Positions 56 through 64,000 of a stretch of DNA of 64,000 nt are shown one piece after another. Below the pieces are notes generated by a model that was not told the origin of the DNA, ran no database searches, and was given only the letters and a program-made list of their open reading frames with translations. The stretch is taken from positions 1-64,000 of the forward strand of contig NZ_JAAMFB010000007.1 of NCBI RefSeq assembly GCF_013322225.1. The letters are read 5' to 3'. Both the position numbers and the translations under genes were made by a program. How positions within the stretch are numbered: position 1 is the stretch's first letter; each line of letters opens with the position of its first letter. The stretch is from Agrobacterium larrymoorei (GTDB lineage: Bacteria > Pseudomonadota > Alphaproteobacteria > Rhizobiales > Rhizobiaceae).

Positions 56-637
56 TTAGCGAAACGCCCGAAACTGTTCAAACAAACTGAGCCACCTCTT
101 TCCGACCCAATCTGCTCCCGATGCCGAGGGCCGAATGGTGCTCAGGATTAAGGGAAACGATGTATCTGCTGGTGAGGATACGCCCTCGGTGGTTGGGAAA
201 AGCAAAGGCCTAAAGCTGCGATTCTTGATCGCTCCAATTCCATGAGGCAGGTACTCGTCCCATATTCGCAGGCTTTCAATTTCACTAGTTTCCCCGCAAA
301 TTGCGCGCAGTCTCGGTTCGTTGATGTTTCGATAGGCACCGTAAAAGCCTACAAGGTTCGAAACGAGATTTTCTCCGCTGAAGCCTGAATTTGTCGCGAC
401 CGAGAAAGGAAAGCTGGCCTGCATATTCTCGAATGTACGAGACGCAGCCATAAAGCTTCCTAAAGCAGCGCTTTCTTTTTGCTGCGCAGACAGGCCCTTA
501 CGAACCACCCAATGAGCAACCGTAGATACCCTGATGCCCATTCCTCCCATTTCCTGTCCATAGACAACGACAAAAGCTGGCTTTCCATTCAGTCGTACAT
601 CCAGACGCTTCAGTAAGGATGACTTCGGCTCCTCCAA
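56..637 (-). CDS. Hypothetical protein, 193 aa
   Basis: An uninterrupted 193-residue frame with no signal peptide or membrane segment. The only credible start is a TTG at 635-637. The frame stays open a further 17 codons upstream of it, to a TGA, without an ATG or GTG, so the 5' end may be damaged or mis-placed. Residues 86-101 (SGENLVSNLVGFYGAY) look like the conserved core of a family; I see a weak likeness to DUF4056 but cannot confirm it. Base composition is a little more AT-rich than most of the window. Function unknown. Confidence 0.5.
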   Translation of the reverse strand: MEEPKSSLLKRLDVRLNGKPAFVVVYGQEMGGMGIRVSTVAHWVVRKGLSAQQKESAALGSFMAASRTFENMQASFPFSVATNSGFSGENLVSNLVGFYGAYRNINEPRLRAICGETSEIESLRIWDEYLPHGIGAIKNRSFRPLLFPTTEGVSSPADTSFPLILSTIRPSASGADWVGKRWLSLFEQFRAFR

Positions 638-6520: not shown

Positions 6521-6955
6521 TTATTTCAGGCGCGGAGAATGCTCTTCAAAAGCCTTCCGCGCCTTTTCTATCTCCGCATGGTGCGTTTCTGCCCAGATCC
6601 ACACGCCGCAAAAGGCGCTACCCAGCGTCTTGCCGAGATGCGTCAAGCTGTAGTCCACATGGGGCGGAATGACGGGATGCACGGTGCGCTTGACCAGTCC
6701 GTCGCATTCCATCTGGCGCAGCGTTTTCGTCAGCATCTTCTGGCTGATATCACCCACGATCCTGCCAATCTGCGTGAAGCGTAAGGTACCGTTATCCTCC
6801 AGCGCTTCAAGGATCAGCATCGTCCATTTGTCGGCCACCTTGGCGATGATATCCTGAACCAGTGCCTCTATCACCGGGTCGGTCTCTTGAGGCGGCGGGT
6901 GCTTGCGTCTGTCTTCGATCTCGGGATCGGCCAAATGCCTTTTCATGTGTGACAC
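6521..6955 (-). CDS. HxlR family transcriptional regulator
   Basis: 144 residues, a single winged-helix domain of the HxlR type: DKWTMLILEALEDNGTLRF followed by ISQKMLTKTLRQME and a wing ending DYSLTHLG. The N-terminal cysteine that redox-sensing members use (as in QorR or HypR) is absent, so sensing by thiol oxidation is unlikely. It is divergent from the SDR gene at 7052, the usual target arrangement; the 97-bp gap holds a spaced inverted pair AAGTA (6968) and TACTT (6990) that could be its operator. Confidence 0.9.
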   Translation of the reverse strand: MSHMKRHLADPEIEDRRKHPPPQETDPVIEALVQDIIAKVADKWTMLILEALEDNGTLRFTQIGRIVGDISQKMLTKTLRQMECDGLVKRTVHPVIPPHVDYSLTHLGKTLGSAFCGVWIWAETHHAEIEKARKAFEEHSPRLK

Positions 6956-7051
6956 TCTCTTTTGGGTAAGTATAAATCTTTCGGGTGCCTACTTTCGATT
7001 GGAGAGCATCTTAGCTAACTTGGTCTCATCCAACAAGAGAGGATAAGCCCG

Positions 7052-7810
7052 ATGAAAATAACCGGTAACACAGTTCTCATCACCGGCGGCGGTTCCGGCA
7101 TTGGCCGGGCGCTGGCCGAAGCCTTTCATGCGCTTGGCAACAAGGTCATCATTTCCGGCCGCCGCCAGACTGCGCTGGATGCGGTAACGCAGGCGAACCC
7201 CGGCATGGTTTCGGTGGTCATGGATGCAACCGAGGCAGACGGCATACGTAGCTTTGCCGATAAACTGACGCGCGACCACCCGGACCTCAACGTCGTCATC
7301 AACAATGCCGGCATCATGAAGAACGAGGACATCAAGGCAGCACCCGATTATCTTGAGACGGCCGAGGAAACCATATCCACCAATCTGCTGGCACCGATCC
7401 GCCTCACAGCAGCTTTGCTTCCGCATTTCCTGCAAAAGCCCGCAGCGGCAGTGCTCACCGTCTCATCCGGGCTCGCCTTCGTGCCGATGGTGGTAACGCC
7501 CACCTACAGCGCGACGAAATCCGCCATCCACGCCTATTCGATGGCGCTGCGCGAGCAGTTGAAAGACACACCGGTCGAAGTCATCGAAATCGTGCCGCCT
7601 TATGTGCAGACGACGCTACAGGGCGAGCATCAGGCCACAGACGAACGCGCCATGCCGCTCGAGGATTATATTTCGGAAGTGATGGATATTCTGACGAACC
7701 GACCGGACGAAAAGGAAGTGGTTGTCGAGCGCTGTAAGCCGCTGAGATTTGCGGCGGAGAGTGGCAATTTCGATCAGGTATTCGGGACGGTGAATGGGAT
7801 GCATGGGTGA
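7052..7810 (+). CDS. SDR oxidoreductase (DltE-like)
   Basis: 252 residues. TGGGSGIG at 11-18, NNAG at 84-87, catalytic Ser139, Tyr152 and Lys156. The sequence resembles the DltE/YbbO group of SDRs that are commonly encoded next to HxlR regulators, as here. Substrate unknown; a reductive detoxification step is the likely role. GAGAGGAT upstream of the ATG serves as the ribosome site. It ends convergently with the aldo/keto reductase gene, with repeat A copy 2 between. Confidence 0.9.
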   Translation: MKITGNTVLITGGGSGIGRALAEAFHALGNKVIISGRRQTALDAVTQANPGMVSVVMDATEADGIRSFADKLTRDHPDLNVVINNAGIMKNEDIKAAPDYLETAEETISTNLLAPIRLTAALLPHFLQKPAAAVLTVSSGLAFVPMVVTPTYSATKSAIHAYSMALREQLKDTPVEVIEIVPPYVQTTLQGEHQATDERAMPLEDYISEVMDILTNRPDEKEVVVERCKPLRFAAESGNFDQVFGTVNGMHG

Positions 7811-7843
7811 GTGCAGCCCGTAAGGTCTGAGCGCGGGGCAAGA

Positions 7844-8060
7844 CCCCTCACTTGCAATTTCTAACACTTAAGCTGCGCTTAAGATGTTGAAATTGCTTTC
7901 TCTCCCACAAGGGGAGAGATATATGTGCTGCGCCGTCGCATCTACTCTCGCCTCTGAGAAGATGTAGCAGCGGCGCGGCAGGTTACCTCTACCCTTGTGG
8001 GAGAGGAAGAAAAATCATGGTCTTAGCTTCAGCTAAGTCATAGATTTTTCAGGTGAGGGG
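7844..8060. repeat. Palindromic repeat family A, copy 2
   Basis: A 217-bp copy with the same inverted ends and the clearest internal palindromes: CTTAAGC-TGC-GCTTAAG on the left arm and CTTAGCTTCAGCTAAG on the right, plus CTCTCCCACAAGGGGAGAG blocks facing each other. It lies between convergent gene ends at 7810 and 8079. Confidence 0.85.
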
Positions 8061-8078
8061 TCGCGCTTCATACGCCAA

Positions 8079-8906
8079 TCAATCATCCCATTCCGGCGCC
8101 AGATGACCCGGATTGACAATCCGGCCATCCTTCTTCGCCAATGCGAAGATCGCCTTCATCTCCTCGTCCGAAAGCTCGAAATCGAAAATGTCGAAATTCT
8201 CGCTCAGGCGGCTTTCGGTGGCGGTTTTGGAGAGGGCGATGATGTCGGGTTGCTGCACGGCCCAGCGCAGTGCGACCTGGGCGGCCGTCTTGCCGTGTTT
8301 GGAGCCGATGTCTTTCAGCACGTCGTCATTCGGTACTTTACCGTCTGCCATCAGATAGTAAGCCGTAATCGAGATACCGTGTCTGCGGGCGGCTTCGATG
8401 ACCTTGGTCTGGTCGAGATAGGGATGATACTCGATCTGGTTGTTGGCAATCGGCGCATCAGAGAGCTTCACGGCCTCATCCATCAGCGCGACGTTGAAGT
8501 TGGAAATGCCGATGTTGCGCACCTTGCCCGCCTTGCGGACTTCGTTCAGCGCGCCGATGCGCTCTGCCAGCGGCACGTCGCTCTGTGGCCAGTGCAGCAG
8601 CAGAAGATCGACGTAATCGGTCTTCAGTTTCGTCAGGCTTTCATCGACAGAGGCGAGGAAGTCGTCGTGTTTGAAACGGTCGACCCAAACCTTCGTGGTC
8701 AGGAAGATATCGCCGCGTGCAATGCCGGAACTGGCGATGGCGTCGCCCACCGCAGCCTCGTTCTTGTAGACCTGAGCCGTATCCACATGGCGGAAGCCGA
8801 GCTTCAAAGCTTGTGGAAGGATGCTATGCACATCGTCTTCCGGCATGCGGAACGTGCCGAAACCGAGGGCCGGAATATTCGCGCCATTGGCGTTCACTGT
8901 CTGCAT
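8079..8906 (-). CDS. Aldo/keto reductase (2,5-diketo-gluconate reductase type)
   Basis: 275 residues, NADPH-dependent AKR fold. The catalytic tetrad is visible: Asp42, Tyr47 (DTAQVYKNE), Lys72 (TTKVW) and His105 (LLHWPQ). The sequence belongs with the DkgA/DkgB group that reduces diketogluconate or methylglyoxal. I place the start at the ATG 8904-8906 (MQTVNANG), which has GGAGAAAA upstream; a longer frame to 9089 would run into the neighbouring gene. It is followed in the same direction by nothing but the repeat, and may be read from the MFS gene promoter. Confidence 0.92.
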   Translation of the reverse strand: MQTVNANGANIPALGFGTFRMPEDDVHSILPQALKLGFRHVDTAQVYKNEAAVGDAIASSGIARGDIFLTTKVWVDRFKHDDFLASVDESLTKLKTDYVDLLLLHWPQSDVPLAERIGALNEVRKAGKVRNIGISNFNVALMDEAVKLSDAPIANNQIEYHPYLDQTKVIEAARRHGISITAYYLMADGKVPNDDVLKDIGSKHGKTAAQVALRWAVQQPDIIALSKTATESRLSENFDIFDFELSDEEMKAIFALAKKDGRIVNPGHLAPEWDD

Positions 8907-8992
8907 GGTGTTTTCTCCATTTTTGGGGAGTTGGCCCCGCAGGTGCGGGGCAGGAAAGGTTCGTTTATTAAGTGTGTCAGGCCGCGTTTGGT

Positions 8993-10174
8993 TCAAGCCG
9001 GTTGCGCAAGATTTGCGCGGCGACGGTCGAGGCTGGCGCTGATCAGCGTCAAAATCAGTGCGCCAGCGACCAGAATTGCGCCGACCCATGGCGTGGCACT
9101 AAGACCAAGAGGCGAGGCGACGACAAGCCCGCCAATCCATGCGCCAACGGCGATGCCGAGATTGAACGCAGCGATGTTCAGCGCCGAGGCCACATCCACC
9201 GCGCCGGGGCGGAAGCGCTTGGCAAGCTGCACCACGTAAAGCTGGAGGCCCGGCACGTTGGCGAATGAAAGGAAGCCGAGTGCAACGAGCGTGACCAGAG
9301 CTGCTGGGGCAGACGGCGCGGTGAAGGTGAATATCAACAGCACCACTGCCTGAAAGGCGAATAGCCAGCTCAGCGCCTTCACCGGGTCACGGTCTGCAAT
9401 GCGCCCACCGCCGAGATTGCCAGCGGCAATGGCCAGGCCATAGAGAACCAGAACGAGGCTGACAGTGCTTTCCGCAAAACCGGTAATTTCCTGCAGAATC
9501 GATGCCAGAAAGGTGAAGGCGACGAATGTGCCGCCATAGCCGAGCGCTGTCATGCCGAAGACCAGCAGCAGCCGACCGGAGGCAAGCACACGCACCTGAT
9601 CCATCAGGCTGGCGGCTGGTGCTTTCTTGAGGTTGGCGGGCAGAAGGGCGGCAATACCGAGAAAGGCGACGACGCCCAATCCGGCGACGGCCCAGAATGT
9701 GGCGCGCCAGCCGAAGGTTTGACCGATCAGCGTGCCAAGCGGGACGCCGGTGACGATGGCAACGGTCAGGCCCATGAACATCATGGCAATGGCCGACGCA
9801 CGGCGGTTTTCCGGCACCAGGTCGGCGGCAATTGTTGCGCCGACGGAGAAGAATACGCCATGCGCGAAGGCTGAGATCACCCGCGCCACGAGCAGCATTC
9901 CATAGCTCGGGCTCAAGGCCGCCGCAGTGTTGCCGACGATGAAGAGCCCCATCAAGCCAAGCAGAAGCGGCTTGCGGTTGATGCCGCCGGTCAACGCGGT
10001 GAGGATGGGCGCGCCAAAGGTAACGCCCAAGGCATAGACCGAGACGATGAGACCTGCGAGCGGGAGCGTGATGTGAAGATCATTCGCGACCGTAGGCAGC
10101 AGCCCAACGATCACGAATTCAGTGGTGCCGATTGCGTAGGCCGCAATCGTCAAAGCAAAAAGAGCCAGGGGCAT
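8993..10174 (-). CDS. MFS transporter (AraJ/YdhP-like drug or sugar efflux)
   Basis: 393 residues with twelve predicted membrane helices. The N-terminus LALFALTIAAYAIGTTEFVI is the signature of the DHA1 subgroup that contains AraJ, YdhP and Cml-type exporters; the A-loop is present between helices 2 and 3. Start at the ATG 10172-10174. A longer in-frame start at 10246 adds an unlikely charged leader. It is divergent from the LysR gene at 10312, and 86 bases upstream of the aldo/keto reductase gene, with which it may be co-transcribed. Substrate unknown. Confidence 0.9.
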   Translation of the reverse strand: MPLALFALTIAAYAIGTTEFVIVGLLPTVANDLHITLPLAGLIVSVYALGVTFGAPILTALTGGINRKPLLLGLMGLFIVGNTAAALSPSYGMLLVARVISAFAHGVFFSVGATIAADLVPENRRASAIAMMFMGLTVAIVTGVPLGTLIGQTFGWRATFWAVAGLGVVAFLGIAALLPANLKKAPAASLMDQVRVLASGRLLLVFGMTALGYGGTFVAFTFLASILQEITGFAESTVSLVLVLYGLAIAAGNLGGGRIADRDPVKALSWLFAFQAVVLLIFTFTAPSAPAALVTLVALGFLSFANVPGLQLYVVQLAKRFRPGAVDVASALNIAAFNLGIAVGAWIGGLVVASPLGLSATPWVGAILVAGALILTLISASLDRRRANLAQPA

Positions 10175-10311
10175 TGTCGTGCCTTTTCTGCCTGCGTCAG
10201 CGCAGGCTTTGAAAGAAGAAGGTGGGTCGGCACGCAATATCGGCATCGAGGACTTGTTTGATAATCCCTATTAATCGATAATCATTTGTGAATTGAAGTC
10301 ACAGGTGAACC
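10175..10311. promoter_or_regulatory. Divergent control region, MFS / LysR
   Basis: The short space between the MFS and LysR starts contains a 7-bp direct repeat GATAATC (10260-10266 and 10277-10283) in an AT-rich stretch, a plausible site for the neighbouring LysR protein. The assignment is inferred from position only. Confidence 0.4.
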
Positions 10312-11238
10312 ATGGATAACCGTGCTGGAGAAATGGAAGTTTTCGTCATGGCGGCAGAGCTGAAGAGCTTTTCCGCCGCAGGGCGACGCTTGAAGCTGTC
10401 ACCTTCTGCCGTCGGAAAGCTTGTCTCGCGCGTGGAGGAGCGGCTGGGAACGCGTCTTCTGGTGCGCTCGACAAGAACACTGGAATTGACACCGGAAGGC
10501 GAGATCTATCTTCGCCGCGCGCGTCGTATTCTCAAAGAGATCGATGAGACTGAGGAGCTTGTCGCGGGCGGGCGGGAAGAGGCGAGGGGCCTGCTGCGCG
10601 TCAATTGCTCCGTGGGCTTTGGAGAGCGCTGCATCCTGCCGCTTGTAGGTGAGTTTTCCGCGCGCCATCCCAGAGTGCGGCTGGATCTGACGCTGACGGA
10701 CGGCGTGATCGACCTCATCGGCGAACGCACCGATATCGCCATTCGCGTCGGACCCATGCGCGACTCCTCGTTGATGGCGCGTCGACTGTTTTCAAGCAAA
10801 CGGGTGATTGTGGCTTCGCCGGATTATCTGGAGAAAAACGGCGTACCGAAAACGCCGGAGGATCTGGACCGGCACAATTGCATCGGCTTCAACTTCCGCC
10901 GCAGTCTCGATGAGTGGCCGTTTCGCAACCCCGGAACGGAGGCAGTGTATACCAGGGCGATCACCGGCAATATTCTGGTTTCCAGCGGCTCCATCAAGCG
11001 GCAATTATGCCTGCTTGGCATCGGCATTGGCCGGATCGGTGAATTCCATGTTCGCCAGGATATCGATGCTGGGCTGCTGGTGCCGGTGCTGGAAGATTAT
11101 AATGGCGGGGACCTGGAACTGGTCCATGCCGTCTATGCGGGACACGAGCATCTTTCTGCCCGCATCCGCGCCTTCATAGACTTCCTGGTGGAGCGGGTCG
11201 ATCAGGCGTTGATCAGCTCGTCAGTCGCGGCGAAGTGA
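10312..11238 (+). CDS. LysR family transcriptional regulator
   Basis: 308 residues. N-terminal winged HTH (residues about 5-64, with SFSAAGRRLKLSPSAVGKLVSR) and a C-terminal effector domain. It falls in the CrgA-like branch commonly found beside MFS efflux genes. It is divergent from the MFS transporter and so probably controls it. Its 3' end overlaps the convergent tadG-like gene by 26 bases. Confidence 0.9.
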   Translation: MDNRAGEMEVFVMAAELKSFSAAGRRLKLSPSAVGKLVSRVEERLGTRLLVRSTRTLELTPEGEIYLRRARRILKEIDETEELVAGGREEARGLLRVNCSVGFGERCILPLVGEFSARHPRVRLDLTLTDGVIDLIGERTDIAIRVGPMRDSSLMARRLFSSKRVIVASPDYLEKNGVPKTPEDLDRHNCIGFNFRRSLDEWPFRNPGTEAVYTRAITGNILVSSGSIKRQLCLLGIGIGRIGEFHVRQDIDAGLLVPVLEDYNGGDLELVHAVYAGHEHLSARIRAFIDFLVERVDQALISSSVAAK

Positions 11239-60554: not shown

Positions 60555-60986
60555 TCATACTCTCCAAGCCAGACGCGCATATTTGCCGGTGGACGACGCA
60601 ACGGCCATCAACGAAACCGCGAAGGTGACGGCGGACAGGATCAACCCATAAGGCACCACCGCCGTCCACCCATCACCCGCGTGAACAAGGCTATTTGCAA
60701 AGGCCAGCACCAGCATCACGACAAACAGCAGAATGGACAGAAACGAAGGCCGCATAGGCCGCGTGCGTCGACGTAACAGGTCAAGCAACCCCGCCACTAT
60801 CGCCAACCCACCGGCGACCAGTCCCGCAAACAGGAGCCACGCCGAAAAACTCGACCACATCAGATTGGCCGTCTGCCAAAACGCAACATCCGTCGCCAGC
60901 GCCAGCGAAAAACACACGAATGGAAAAGGCACGAAAAGAGACTGAAATGGATAGGCAGATGCTTCTCTGCGAGACACGTCATTCAT
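60555..60986 (-). CDS. DUF2231 membrane protein
   Basis: 143 residues with four membrane helices (about 13-31, 37-57, 77-97, 105-125). HPF-type opening replaced by YPFQSLFVPFPFVCFSLALATDVAFWQT; the DUF2231 family holds two or more helices with a conserved aspartate. It directly precedes the dehydrogenase-like gene (three bases apart) and is probably its partner. ATG 60984-60986. Confidence 0.85.
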   Translation of the reverse strand: MNDVSRREASAYPFQSLFVPFPFVCFSLALATDVAFWQTANLMWSSFSAWLLFAGLVAGGLAIVAGLLDLLRRRTRPMRPSFLSILLFVVMLVLAFANSLVHAGDGWTAVVPYGLILSAVTFAVSLMAVASSTGKYARLAWRV

Positions 60987-61193
60987 GTCTGGGCTCCAAC
61001 CGGGAAGGAAATGAACGCCCAAGTGCTTGAGGGGCTTGGCCGTTTTGGTGTCGAGATGAACGGTTGGGGAGGGGATTTGGTTGCGGTATCGAGCTTGAGC
61101 GTTTCAGAAACGCAAGCTTACTGTAGCCACTGACGAAAACACTGTCGCGAGTATGGAGAATCATATTATCCATGGCTCGGACAGGGGTTGGTC

Positions 61194-61601
61194 ATGCGGA
61201 TACTTTACGAGCTACTGAAAATCGCAGTTGGCGTTGCCGTTGGTGCTTGCCTAGTGGTATTTTTAAACGTGAACCTCCATTTATTTAGTGATGGGGCAAG
61301 TGTTCAAAGTGTCGGGTTGAGTTACGCCGACCTAGCAGCGATCAATTTAACGGTCGCCACAGTGGTACTAGGCGCAGTAGCTCTAATAGTCGGTGTGGTA
61401 GCGGTATTTGGTTTTCAAATTATCCGTTCTGAGTCTGTGTCGAATGCTGAGCAACGTGTTTTGAAAGAAATGCCCCAAATGGTTGAGCGAGAGCTTGGTA
61501 GAATGGAGAAAAATGGTGGCTTAGGCCGCGCGATGGAACGCGTTATTTACTCCGGTGGTTCAGACCATGACGATGGGAGTCAAACGACTCCTGAAGCATA
61601 A
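61194..61601 (+). CDS. Small membrane protein with cytoplasmic tail, first gene of the AT-rich operon
   Basis: 135 residues. Two membrane helices (about 5-28, LYELLKIAVGVAVGACLVVFLNVN, and about 53-77, LTVATVVLGAVALIVGVVAVFGFQI), then a charged cytoplasmic helix (VSNAEQRVLKEMPQMVERELGRMEKNGG) that could form a coiled coil. No family recognised. ATG 61194 has AGGGG upstream; TTG 61188 is in frame. About 45% GC by eye, against about 60% in neighbours. Twelve bases separate it from the ImmA/IrrE gene. Confidence 0.72.
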   Translation: MRILYELLKIAVGVAVGACLVVFLNVNLHLFSDGASVQSVGLSYADLAAINLTVATVVLGAVALIVGVVAVFGFQIIRSESVSNAEQRVLKEMPQMVERELGRMEKNGGLGRAMERVIYSGGSDHDDGSQTTPEA

Positions 61602-61613
61602 AGAGGTCTAAAA

Positions 61614-62117
61614 ATGGCAACTAAAACGAAAGAGTGGCAAAAGATTAAGCATGCCGACCGTGATATTATCGAGAAGTATTTGAATCAAGTGCCCGTGAAA
61701 TTAGGCGCGATTGCTAGAGAATTAGGAATTGACGTTAAGTTGTCCTCACTTCCTATGAATGTATCCGGCCAAATTGCGAAAACATTAGACGGGTATGAGA
61801 TAAAGATTAATAGGCATGAGAGTCGTCAAAGGCAGCGCTTTACTCTTGCTCACGAAATAGCACACTTTTTGATACATCGTGAAACTATAGATAGGCTGGG
61901 TGGTACATTAACTGACAATGTGCTTTACCGGTCGGGAGCATCAGAAAGTATCGAATATGAGGCTAATCGGCTCGCATCTCAGATAGTTATGCCCGATAGT
62001 GCTTTAGAGGAAGCGTATTCACGCTACGGCGCTAACATCAGCGAGAGTGTAGTAGAAGCTCTTGCGGAGCAGTTCGGAGTTTCCAAAGCGGCGATGGAAA
62101 TACGAATGGCGGCTTGA
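61614..62117 (+). CDS. ImmA/IrrE family metallo-endopeptidase
   Basis: 167 residues. The zinc motif HEIAHFLIH carries the two histidines and catalytic Glu (HExxH, residues about 79-83), with the third ligand in EYEANRLASQIVMPD. ImmA degrades the ICE repressor ImmR, and IrrE regulates stress genes in Deinococcus by cutting a repressor. The N-terminus is a short helical HTH-like segment (VKLGAIARELGIDVKLSS) rather than a full HTH domain. It follows the membrane protein at 12 bases and precedes the beta-family gene at 22 bases. Low GC. Confidence 0.9.
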   Translation: MATKTKEWQKIKHADRDIIEKYLNQVPVKLGAIARELGIDVKLSSLPMNVSGQIAKTLDGYEIKINRHESRQRQRFTLAHEIAHFLIHRETIDRLGGTLTDNVLYRSGASESIEYEANRLASQIVMPDSALEEAYSRYGANISESVVEALAEQFGVSKAAMEIRMAA

Positions 62118-62139
62118 GTCTGTTAGCAAAAGGTGGGCA

Positions 62140-63222
62140 ATGGCAGTCGATATATCAAATCTCAATTACGTTCCTACGCTTGCCGTTAGGTCAAGCGAAA
62201 TGAATGGATTGGAGCGGCTTCCAGCTGCGTCAAAGGATCGATTGCAACCGACTTTCTTATTAGCGCCGTGGCCAAATGCGACAGAACTCATGCGGACAGT
62301 TGATCGTGTTCAAAGGGCGTTTCCAAGTAGGCCTTTCTTTCTAGATATAGATAGAGACTACGAAATTACCAATATGGATGCTGCCGCGCAGCAGCATTGG
62401 CTTGAGCTACAGGATCCGGCTAACAGTTACGCAAATTGGATTGGGTTTGTTGAAGGTGTTACAACTGCTAGTCCATGTCTCCAAATTGCTGGTCTAACGC
62501 ACGCCTCAATTGCTGAGCAAATTGGCGCATTTCAGGAGATGGGCAGGACATTTGCTCTTCGTATTGAGCTGCAGAGATTTCCGCCAAATCTCAGCCAAGC
62601 TATCACTGCGATTAATGAGATTGGTTCAGCAGATTATGCCGTAATCTTAGATGCAGGGTGGATACACGATACTCAACCAACTAGGTTGAGGATAGCTAAT
62701 TTGATTAGCAACCAGCTAAGTGGCATCGACGCCGAAATTCCTTTGGTAGTTTCGTACACCACTATACCAAAGGGTTTTGCGGAGGTCGAGGGCGCGGAGT
62801 TCGAGGCGTTCGATAACCGACAATGTATTTCTGAACTCGTTCAACTAACAAACCGACAACGCATAATTTACGGGGATTGGGGCAGCACGAGGCCGCGTGA
62901 AAGAGGCATTGCTAGTAGGCCAAAGCCCAGGATTGATTTAGCTCTTCGGGATGGTTGGCTGTCTGCGCGTAATAAGCCGGAAGACTGGGACTACGACGAT
63001 GCCGCAAATCAAGTGCTAAGCAATCCTCGATGGCAAGAAGTTGATGGTCTAGGCGTTTGGGGAGAGTTTATGATTCGCCAAACGGCAATTAGTCCTAATC
63101 TAGGAATAAATTCACCGCAAAAAAACGTGGCTGCTAGGGTAAATCTTCATCTGCATACTCAAGCCTTTTATAACGATGGTGACATAAGGGGAATTAATCT
63201 TGACGAACAGTGGGAGGATTAA
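62140..63222 (+). CDS. Beta family protein, third gene of the AT-rich operon
   Basis: 360 residues, no membrane segment. YVPTLAVRSSEMNGLERLPAASKDRLQPTFLLAPWPNA is the characteristic start of the beta-protein family (Pfam Beta_protein), and alternating strand-helix units (PFFLDIDRD, YAVILDAGW, IPLVVSYTTIPKGF, RIIYGDWGS) suggest a TIM-barrel-like fold. Function unknown; I infer only that it works with the peptidase. Start at ATG 62140 behind AGGTGG; the longer frame from 62062 overlaps the previous gene. Ends 46 bases from the convergent PBP gene. Confidence 0.85.
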   Translation: MAVDISNLNYVPTLAVRSSEMNGLERLPAASKDRLQPTFLLAPWPNATELMRTVDRVQRAFPSRPFFLDIDRDYEITNMDAAAQQHWLELQDPANSYANWIGFVEGVTTASPCLQIAGLTHASIAEQIGAFQEMGRTFALRIELQRFPPNLSQAITAINEIGSADYAVILDAGWIHDTQPTRLRIANLISNQLSGIDAEIPLVVSYTTIPKGFAEVEGAEFEAFDNRQCISELVQLTNRQRIIYGDWGSTRPRERGIASRPKPRIDLALRDGWLSARNKPEDWDYDDAANQVLSNPRWQEVDGLGVWGEFMIRQTAISPNLGINSPQKNVAARVNLHLHTQAFYNDGDIRGINLDEQWED

Positions 63223-63267
63223 CGGTGTGTTTGGTGGGCACCTTAGAGTTCCGCACCGAGTTCAAAC

Positions 63268-64000
63268 CTACCGCTTCACCCCATCCGTCCCAACTTCTGC
63301 CACCCTCTGCGTCGTCAGCGAAGGCGCAGACGCCTCCTTCAACTGCTTGCCAATCGAACGAATGACCCTTGTCGCTTCTGCCGAAAGCGAGCGTGGGCGG
63401 GTCAGCGCTGGCAGGGCGTTGGCGTCTGCGGAGGCTATCGCTGCGCCGGCTGCTGGTTGTGGGCGCGAGCCGGTGGGCAGAGGGTTCTGGATGCCGGGGA
63501 TGGGGCGCAGCTCCATGCCCTGGTGGGCGTAGTCCATCAGGCGTTTGAAGGTCATGGCGGGCAGCGCGCCGCCGGTCATGTTGTTCATCGAGGTGAACTC
63601 GTCGTTACCGAACCAGACGGCGGTGGTGTAGTTGCCGGTAAAGCCGACATACCATGCGTCGCGGTACGCCTGAGAGGTGCCGGTCTTGCCGCCGGAGACG
63701 ATGCCGTTTTCCAGAGCGCCGCGTCTGGCGGTGCCTTCCACCGGGATCGTCACCAGCATGCGGTTCATCTTGGAGTTGGCTTCTTCCGAAAGAACGCGGT
63801 GCGCAGGCTGCTCGTCTCGGTCGAAATCGTAGAGAACCTTGCCCTCGTAATCCAGCACCTGCTCGATGCCATGTCGGCGGGACTGCATGCCGTTTGCCGG
63901 AAATACCGCATACGCCGTTGCCTGATCCAGCACCGTCACTTCCGATGTGCCGAGCGGAATCGTCTTGTCCGTGCGCAGCGGTGTGGCGACACCCATGGCT
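63268..64000 (-). CDS. Penicillin-binding protein 1A (C-terminal part, partial)
   Basis: The last 243 residues of a class A PBP; the gene continues past the window's end. The transpeptidase KTGT motif is in VSGGKTGTSQAYRDAWYVGFTGNY, and the upstream TVLDQATAYAVFPANG and the following WFGNDEFTSMNNMTGGALPA are typical. The C-terminal 70 residues are a disordered, alanine/proline/serine-rich tail. It makes and cross-links peptidoglycan in the periplasm. The gene is usually long (over 800 residues), so only the 3' quarter is here. No symbol is given because ponA and mrcA naming differs between species. Confidence 0.92.
   Translation of the reverse strand, partial: AMGVATPLRTDKTIPLGTSEVTVLDQATAYAVFPANGMQSRRHGIEQVLDYEGKVLYDFDRDEQPAHRVLSEEANSKMNRMLVTIPVEGTARRGALENGIVSGGKTGTSQAYRDAWYVGFTGNYTTAVWFGNDEFTSMNNMTGGALPAMTFKRLMDYAHQGMELRPIPGIQNPLPTGSRPQPAAGAAIASADANALPALTRPRSLSAEATRVIRSIGKQLKEASAPSLTTQRVAEVGTDGVKR

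What the first reader, a model, noticed from the sequence alone, without database searches (positions are those of the whole stretch)
61194..63222. AT-rich three-gene operon: membrane protein, ImmA/IrrE peptidase, beta-family protein
The three genes are tightly spaced (12 and 22 bases), share one direction, and are clearly poorer in GC (about 42-47% by eye) than both flanks (about 60%). They sit between two housekeeping-type genes. ImmA/IrrE enzymes are known to cleave repressors when triggered, and the beta-family protein is uncharacterised. A membrane sensor with a coiled-coil tail next to a triggerable protease and an unknown effector is the layout expected of a stress-response or anti-phage module. 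That function is inference: there is no integrase, no recognised defence gene and no repressor gene nearby.
Basis: partly seen in the sequence, partly recalled or inferred. Interest (0 to 1): 0.8.

Follow-up and report, generated by a model that had tools for sequence, protein, structure and literature searches.

The report
Three-gene phage-defence module with protease
This is a mobile three-gene unit, found in many alphaproteobacteria, that links known anti-phage suicide systems by pairing a small membrane protein and a metalloprotease with a relative of the phage P4 antitoxin 'beta'; its function has not been tested.

Summary
In detail: three co-directional genes (12- and 22-base gaps) with the lowest GC in the window (46.4%; GC3 0.41-0.42 against a median of 0.68). 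They are a conserved unit: membrane protein - ImmA/IrrE (M78) peptidase - beta stands in 64 of 71 counted genome loci found with beta. At this site 14 of 14 fetched genus relatives carry other cargo. Beta is not an unknown: it is the phage P4 antitoxin family of the validated gop-beta-cII system, related to component C of the validated PD-lambda-2 system. The membrane protein sits where the toxin Gop sits, but homology to Gop is not shown. Ten bridging loci (membrane protein-M78-beta plus cII) connect the layouts; all 91 M78 proteins found beside beta keep HExxH. Best reading: a toxin-antitoxin-like anti-phage module in which the membrane protein kills and M78 and beta gate it. Membrane protein-M78 pairs without beta also exist, so M78 may be the antitoxin and beta the phage sensor. 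Function, trigger and protease substrate are inferred, not shown. New variant of a known kind.

The parts
61194..61601 (+). T: 135-aa membrane protein, two predicted hydrophobic helices, long helical tail, acidic C-terminus; probable toxin/effector
   Evidence: AlphaFold model helices 2-34, 44-106, 109-120, mean pLDDT 82.3, pTM 0.48; profile match to T of six cII-bearing loci (hhalign 99.3%) but not shown homologous to P4 Gop (48% over 34 columns)
61614..62117 (+). M78: 167-aa ImmA/IrrE metallopeptidase, no N-terminal Xre domain
   Evidence: Pfam Peptidase_M78 E 2.5e-21; PADLOC CapP E 3.9e-29, RmrA 6.6e-11, PD-Lambda-2_B 6.7e-8
61851..61865 (+). HEIAH zinc-site motif of the peptidase (residues 80-84)
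   Evidence: sequence; H80, E81, H84 invariant in 42 aligned members; HExxH in 91 of 91 M78 proteins counted beside beta
62140..63222 (+). beta: 360-aa protein of the phage P4 beta family, predicted alpha/beta barrel
   Evidence: Pfam Beta_protein E 4e-46; PADLOC beta E 5.1e-45; 29.6% identity over 99% to P4 beta; AlphaFold pLDDT 94.6, pTM 0.93; general TIM-barrel matches
63196..63219 (+). acidic-aromatic C-terminal tail of beta (last 8 residues)
   Evidence: such a tail in 93 of 99 betas with a membrane-protein partner, 1 of 9 with a long (mostly Xre-fused) M78 partner, 2 of 6 with only cII seen, 1 of 1 with M78 alone; not independent of phylogeny
60555..60986 (-). left flank of the variable site: DUF2231 membrane protein (not part of the module)
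63268..63999 (-). right flank of the variable site: 3' end of a penicillin-binding protein gene (not part of the module; name recalled)

Best explanation
The trio is a three-component toxin-antitoxin-like anti-phage (abortive infection) module. The 2-helix membrane protein T is the toxin and damages the inner membrane when free. In uninfected cells it is held silent by the M78 peptidase protein and beta. Phage infection is sensed by the beta/M78 pair, and M78 proteolysis (of beta's tail or of T's cytoplasmic tail), or its loss, switches T on, so that the infected cell dies before phage release. Shown here: the unit, its conservation, its patchy and site-changing presence, the intact protease motif, the membership of beta in a family used by two validated defence systems, and the positional match of T to the toxin Gop. 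Inferred: the toxicity of T, the control by M78 and beta, the protease substrate and the trigger.
For: Order T-M78-beta in 64 of 71 counted genome loci and 5 of 23 viral-contig loci; all 64 T proteins match the T profile, 22 of 22 that were not used to build it. Window beta hits P4 beta over 99% of its length. In P4 the gene just upstream is gop, 133 aa with two hydrophobic stretches and a polar tail. Gop is toxic without beta, and gop-beta-cII protects against lambda and P1 (PMC9122126, passages). Bridging loci with T-M78-beta plus cII: 10 in the combined set. PD-lambda-2 joins a HigB-like gene, an Xre-ImmA/IrrE fusion and a P4-antitoxin relative needed for defence (PMC9519451, passages); P4 beta matches PADLOC PD-Lambda-2_C at 8e-14. 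RosmerTA pairs an ImmA-domain antitoxin with toxins of which one depolarises membranes (PMC10440598, passages). A three-component toxin-antitoxin system with a COG2856 (ImmA-type) protease was predicted in 2009 (PMC2701414, passages). Foreign composition and variable site.
Against: No experiment. T has no detected homology to Gop and no PADLOC match at E <= 1. T-M78 pairs without beta stand in 10 of 12 regions that I picked and fetched, so beta cannot be the only control of T everywhere. One locus (L008) has M78-beta and no T beside it. In PD-lambda-2 the Xre-peptidase itself was toxic and was rescued by the HigB-like gene, so roles may not follow the names. No clear enrichment of defence genes beside the unit.
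Confidence: 0.55

Rival explanations
1. T-M78 is a RosmerTA-like toxin-antitoxin pair complete in itself (M78 is the antitoxin), and beta is an added phage sensor or recruiter needed for defence but not for neutralising the toxin, as reported for PD-lambda-2C.
For: T-M78 pairs without beta in 10 of 12 picked regions of family genomes; the ImmA domain is a hub antitoxin domain, and one RmrT partner depolarises membranes; PD-lambda-2C not required for neutralisation but required for defence.
Against: Beta of the trio lies nearer to P4-type betas, where beta is reported to neutralise the toxin, than to betas of Xre-M78 loci; M78-beta without T exists; P0001 matches no RmrT model. Two of the ten T matches are weak.
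Confidence: 0.3
2. A stress-response regulator: the peptidase cleaves a repressor elsewhere in the genome (as ImmA/ImmR, IrrE/DdrO, CapP/CapH), the membrane protein is a sensor and beta an enzyme; no role against phages.
For: ImmA/IrrE peptidases cleave Xre repressors, with ssDNA activation for PprI and, as cited there, CapP (PMC10904395, abstract and passages). The predicted barrel of beta has invariant charged residues.
Against: Beta belongs to the family of two validated defence systems; patchy presence, 5 of 39 genus genomes, and changing sites fit defence cargo better than core regulation. I noticed no repressor gene travelling with the unit, but made no search for one.
Confidence: 0.1
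3. A plain addiction or prophage-maintenance toxin-antitoxin locus without a defence role.
For: Present in 5 of 23 viral-contig loci; toxin-antitoxin-like make-up.
Against: Present in chromosomes of several alphaproteobacterial families with the protease motif intact; relatives validated as defence.
Confidence: 0.05

Closest known systems
gop-beta-cII of satellite phage P4 (Rousset 2022, PMC9122126, passages; Ghisotti 1990 is cited there and was not seen)
   Same: beta homologue over its whole length (29.6% identity); small membrane protein upstream of it in the same direction; acidic tail of beta
   Different: P4 has no M78 gene beside beta; the window has no cII beside beta; T is not demonstrably homologous to Gop; trio betas and P4-type betas form separate groups
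PD-lambda-2 (Vassallo 2022, PMC9519451, passages)
   Same: toxin-like gene, ImmA/IrrE peptidase, P4-antitoxin relative, in that order; P0002 matches PD-Lambda-2_B at 6.7e-8
   Different: There the first gene is HigB-like and the peptidase is fused to an Xre domain; here a membrane protein and a bare M78. P0003 itself gave no PD-Lambda-2_C match at E <= 1
RosmerTA (RmrT/RmrA; PMC10440598, passages)
   Same: ImmA-domain protein beside a toxin; one RmrT depolarises membranes; RmrA model match 6.6e-11
   Different: No RmrT match for T, no Xre part in M78, and beta is extra
CapP/CapH of CBASS
   Same: best PADLOC model for the peptidase, CapP E 3.9e-29 over positions 4-151 of 242
   Different: flanks are a DUF2231 gene and a penicillin-binding protein gene, not CBASS genes; lacks the model's last third

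Membership tests
gop-beta-cII | beta gene | tested here: met
   PADLOC beta E 5.1e-45; P4 beta 29.6% over 99%
gop-beta-cII | gop gene (by sequence) | tested here: not met
   no PADLOC match for P0001 at E <= 1, while P4 Gop matches the gop model at 4.8e-70; profile comparison 48% over 34 columns only
gop-beta-cII | small membrane protein upstream of beta | tested here: met
   but an M78 gene lies between
gop-beta-cII | cII (sce7726) gene beside beta | tested here: not met
   no match to the cII profile within 2.5 kb of the window's beta
PD-lambda-2 | HigB-like first gene | tested here: not met
   P0001 is a membrane protein with no Pfam match over cut-off and no PADLOC match
PD-lambda-2 | Xre domain fused to ImmA/IrrE peptidase | tested here: not met
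   M78 is 167 aa and matches only positions 292-369 of 402 of PD-Lambda-2_B
PD-lambda-2 | P4-beta-like third component | tested here: met
   but no direct match of P0003 to the PD-Lambda-2_C models at E <= 1
RosmerTA | ImmA-domain antitoxin with cognate RmrT toxin | tested here: inconclusive
   RmrA models match the peptidase part (6.6e-11), no RmrT match
CBASS CapH/CapP | CapP with CapH and a CBASS operon | tested here: not met
   CapP-like peptidase only; neighbours are T, beta, a DUF2231 gene and a penicillin-binding protein gene
anti-phage system | protects a host from phage | not testable with these tools
   needs an experiment

The most novel reading that the evidence does not exclude
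T-M78-beta is an undescribed defence family that unites gop-beta-cII, PD-lambda-2 and RosmerTA into one modular design: a swappable toxin (membrane protein, HigB or other), an ImmA/IrrE peptidase gate and a barrel-fold beta protein that senses infection. The P4 system would then be a reduced form that lost the peptidase.
Probability: 0.4. Interest if true: 0.75.

Novelty: new variant of a known kind. Interest (0 to 1): 0.55.

Why it matters
Separately named defence systems share parts, and this layout holds the link: it has the membrane partner and beta of P4 and the peptidase-beta pair of PD-lambda-2. It gives a simple, testable setting for what an ImmA/IrrE peptidase does when no repressor gene lies beside it. 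It would also make these loci visible to defence-finding tools, since a definition that asks for gop, beta and cII would miss them (inference; the tools' own rules were not seen).

Tried and rejected
Gop homology for T: not proven. Beta as a wholly unknown protein: rejected. CBASS CapP membership: rejected, no CBASS genes beside it. Solved-structure relatives of beta by sequence: none convincing (best E 0.21). Structure search: general TIM-barrel enzymes and other unrelated enzymes in the PDB (best E 8.9e-5, TM-scores of about 0.2-0.5) and one uncharacterised Gordonia phage protein in the viral library (E 2e-14), so no enzyme function is claimed.

Defence-island enrichment: I took the nearest long ORF (150-900 aa, picked by length, so some may not be genes) on each side of the 64 T-M78-beta genome loci, 116 in all, and 89 outer ORFs as a control. 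PADLOC at 1e-10 listed 58 families for the nearest set (25 shown, many being models of the same protein) and 10 for the outer set. The tool gives no count of proteins, so I claim no enrichment. Pfam Resolvase was in 5 and Phage_integrase in 2 of the 116 (25 of 97 families shown); neither is among the 25 of 65 families shown for the 89 outer ORFs, where single-member families are cut off: weak at best.

The link between beta's acidic tail and a membrane partner rests on only 3 independent pairs on the tree and has no statistical support. Promoter- and terminator-like sites were no more frequent than in shuffles. One 'membrane protein' (L153, phylum sample) is a 240-aa nuclease-like protein (my reading) and was dropped.

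Literature: PF14350 gave no paper. Searches on 'beta family protein', gop with other words, PD-lambda-2, CapP/CapH, COG2856 and RosmerTA/ImmA/IrrE listed no paper on this trio; the lists were capped, and searches were mostly off-topic. The library holds no bioRxiv and few subscription papers.

Full report
What is there. The window holds three + strand genes at 61194-61601, 61614-62117 and 62140-63222, 12 and 22 bases apart. The trio has 46.4% GC, and none of 620 windows of its size in the 64 kb is at or below that; GC3 is 0.41-0.42 against a median of 0.68 over 46 long ORFs. The second gene is a Peptidase_M78 (ImmA/IrrE) protein (E 2.5e-21), the third a Beta_protein (E 4e-46); the first has no Pfam match over a cut-off. 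PADLOC names the third 'beta' (E 5.1e-45) and places the second near CapP (3.9e-29), RmrA (6.6e-11) and PD-Lambda-2_B (6.7e-8); the first has no PADLOC match at E <= 1.

The site. In the 39 genomes of the genus a beta relative is present in 5, the window's included. The DUF2231 gene of the left flank has a match in 17 of 39 genomes, two of them weak. In the 14 relatives with a strong match I fetched the stretch to the penicillin-binding protein gene. All 14 have other cargo between the flanks, in gaps of 1.0 to 5.1 kb, and no T, M78 or beta match in the fetched stretches. Of ten proteins given to Pfam, seven of them named as cargo in three or more of these stretches, two are CdiI immunity proteins and two CdiA-CT RNase A toxins (L158, L166, L170). 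In G031, G021 and G009 the unit (T-M78-beta in the first two, M78-beta without T in G009) lies beside an esterase gene, a second site; the gap there to the next gene is 0.6-0.73 kb in 16 of 30 relatives' loci. On the beta tree the genus members fall in different places: the window with Rhizobium sp. 18065 (81% identity), G029, G009 and the pair G031/G021 elsewhere. This fits repeated acquisition.

Conservation of the unit. An alignment of six betas found 74 loci in genome contigs and 23 in viral contigs. Three of the 74 repeat places of genus genomes and were dropped. Of the 71 left, 64 have membrane protein-M78-beta in that order, 5 of them with cII as well (the membrane protein was called by ORF and hydropathy). 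All 64 membrane proteins match the T profile at 1e-3, including 22 of 22 that were not in it. Of the other seven, L039 and L057 are cut by contig ends before M78 could be seen, L083 is a partial beta at a contig end, L071 has a broken beta with an M78 ahead of it, L078 and L080 have a membrane protein and cII but no M78, and L085 has cII only. Of 23 viral loci 5 have the trio, 16 are membrane protein-beta with cII (P4-like), 1 is membrane protein-beta (cut by the contig end) and 1 beta alone. This search used patterns from alphaproteobacterial betas and P4, so it leans to such relatives.

A less biased sample. With the Pfam model instead, M78 (bare or in a longer protein) lies beside beta in 8 of 9 counted loci of the family sample (15 loci; 4 repeats or fragments and 2 without a beta ORF dropped) and in 9 of 13 of the phylum sample (16 places; the window's own and two fragments dropped). 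PF14350 was over its cut-off in 13 of 297 family genomes and 13 of 398 phylum genomes. All 91 M78 proteins counted beside beta have HExxH.

What beta is. tblastn of the window's beta finds the beta gene of satellite phage P4 at 29.6% identity over 99%. P4 carries gop, beta and, on the other strand, cII. Gop, 133 aa, has two hydrophobic stretches by the looser of my two hydropathy settings (one by the stricter) and a polar tail. The paper's passages say that gop is toxic without beta and that gop-beta-cII protects against lambda and P1 (PMC9122126). P4 beta also matches PADLOC's PD-Lambda-2_C at 8e-14. In PD-lambda-2 the first component is HigB-like, the second an Xre-peptidase fusion, the third related to a P4 phage antitoxin and needed for defence against lambda-vir (PMC9519451, passages). 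One fetched locus, L174, has a small HigB-like ORF (my reading of the sequence), an Xre-M78 fusion and beta; others have a long M78 protein and beta with other or no clear upstream partner. The predicted beta structure is confident (pLDDT 94.6, pTM 0.93) and resembles TIM barrels only in a general way. Ten columns are invariant in 67 betas.

The membrane protein. The model has helices 2-34, 44-106 and 109-120 and a low-confidence end (pLDDT 82.3, pTM 0.48). Its family matches the membrane protein of six bridging loci (T-M78-beta with cII; hhalign 99.3%) and, less well, of four more (92.7%), but P4-type Gop only at 48% over 34 columns. So the match to Gop is by place, size and build, not by proven descent.

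A fact against the simplest story. A profile of T matched 15 of 297 family genomes at 1e-3; five of these have a beta over cut-off. I fetched 12 regions chosen from the T and M78 matches of genomes without beta beside them, not a random sample. In 10 of 12 T and M78 are adjacent in the same direction with no beta match in the region; two of these ten T matches are weak (E 2e-3 and 8e-4), and one T is only 82 aa. A two-gene T-M78 unit thus exists, much like RosmerTA, where an ImmA-domain antitoxin faces a toxin that in one case depolarises the membrane (PMC10440598, passages). This raises the rival in which M78 is the antitoxin and beta the sensor.

Evolution. On a quick tree of 111 betas, those with a membrane partner and those with long M78 or cII-only partners split (support 97; the long-branched L153 stands on the first side). 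P4-type betas form one group (99, 18 rows) and M78-bearing betas with a membrane partner another (99, 77 rows). In the latter the cII-bearing forms lie outside the large set without cII (98, 67 rows), and G031/G021, without cII, lie among them. Three long-branched rows with M78 (L121, L151, L152) lie outside both groups, which would fit loss of M78 in the P4 line, but long branches make this unsure. Betas with a membrane partner mostly end in an acidic-aromatic tail (93 of 99), those with a long M78 rarely (1 of 9), cII-only 2 of 6, M78 alone 1 of 1, ten fragments left out. This is one or few events on the tree (3 independent pairs), so it is a hint only.

Verdict. A new variant of a known kind: a likely anti-phage toxin-antitoxin-like module that combines parts of gop-beta-cII, PD-lambda-2 and RosmerTA. 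It fails defining features of the first two (no gop by sequence, no cII, no HigB, no Xre fusion) and lacks an RmrT match, so it is not filed as a member of any. I found no paper on this trio in the searches listed under Tried and rejected. Function is untested.

Noticed in passing
window 60986-63268; L158, L166, L170: In relatives the same site holds CdiA-CT RNase A-type toxin and CdiI immunity genes: a small hotspot for toxin/immunity cargo.
   Followed up: partly
L225-L232, L235, L236: Two-gene units of a small membrane protein and an M78 peptidase without beta, in 10 of 12 picked regions.
   Followed up: partly
L008 8289-9856: M78-beta pair with no membrane-protein gene before it; protease motif and beta tail are kept.
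   Followed up: partly
L008, L009, L010, L237-L266: A second insertion site between an esterase gene and a PRC-barrel-like gene (both names recalled), used by three genus members in two orientations; the gap is 0.6-0.73 kb in 16 of 30 loci read.
   Followed up: partly
L036 about 6900-10600: Apparent repeat of the unit: three M78 ORFs and two beta ORFs in a row.
   Followed up: no
L171-L177: Long M78 proteins, several with an Xre-like domain, upstream of beta, some with cII, with varied or no clear upstream partner.
   Followed up: partly
Gordonia phage Powerball A0A5J6TRS2: An uncharacterised actinophage protein has a predicted structure like beta (Foldseek E 2e-14).
   Followed up: no
window 56-637 (-): An ORF with GC3 0.51, the next lowest among the long ORFs after the trio's.
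   Followed up: no
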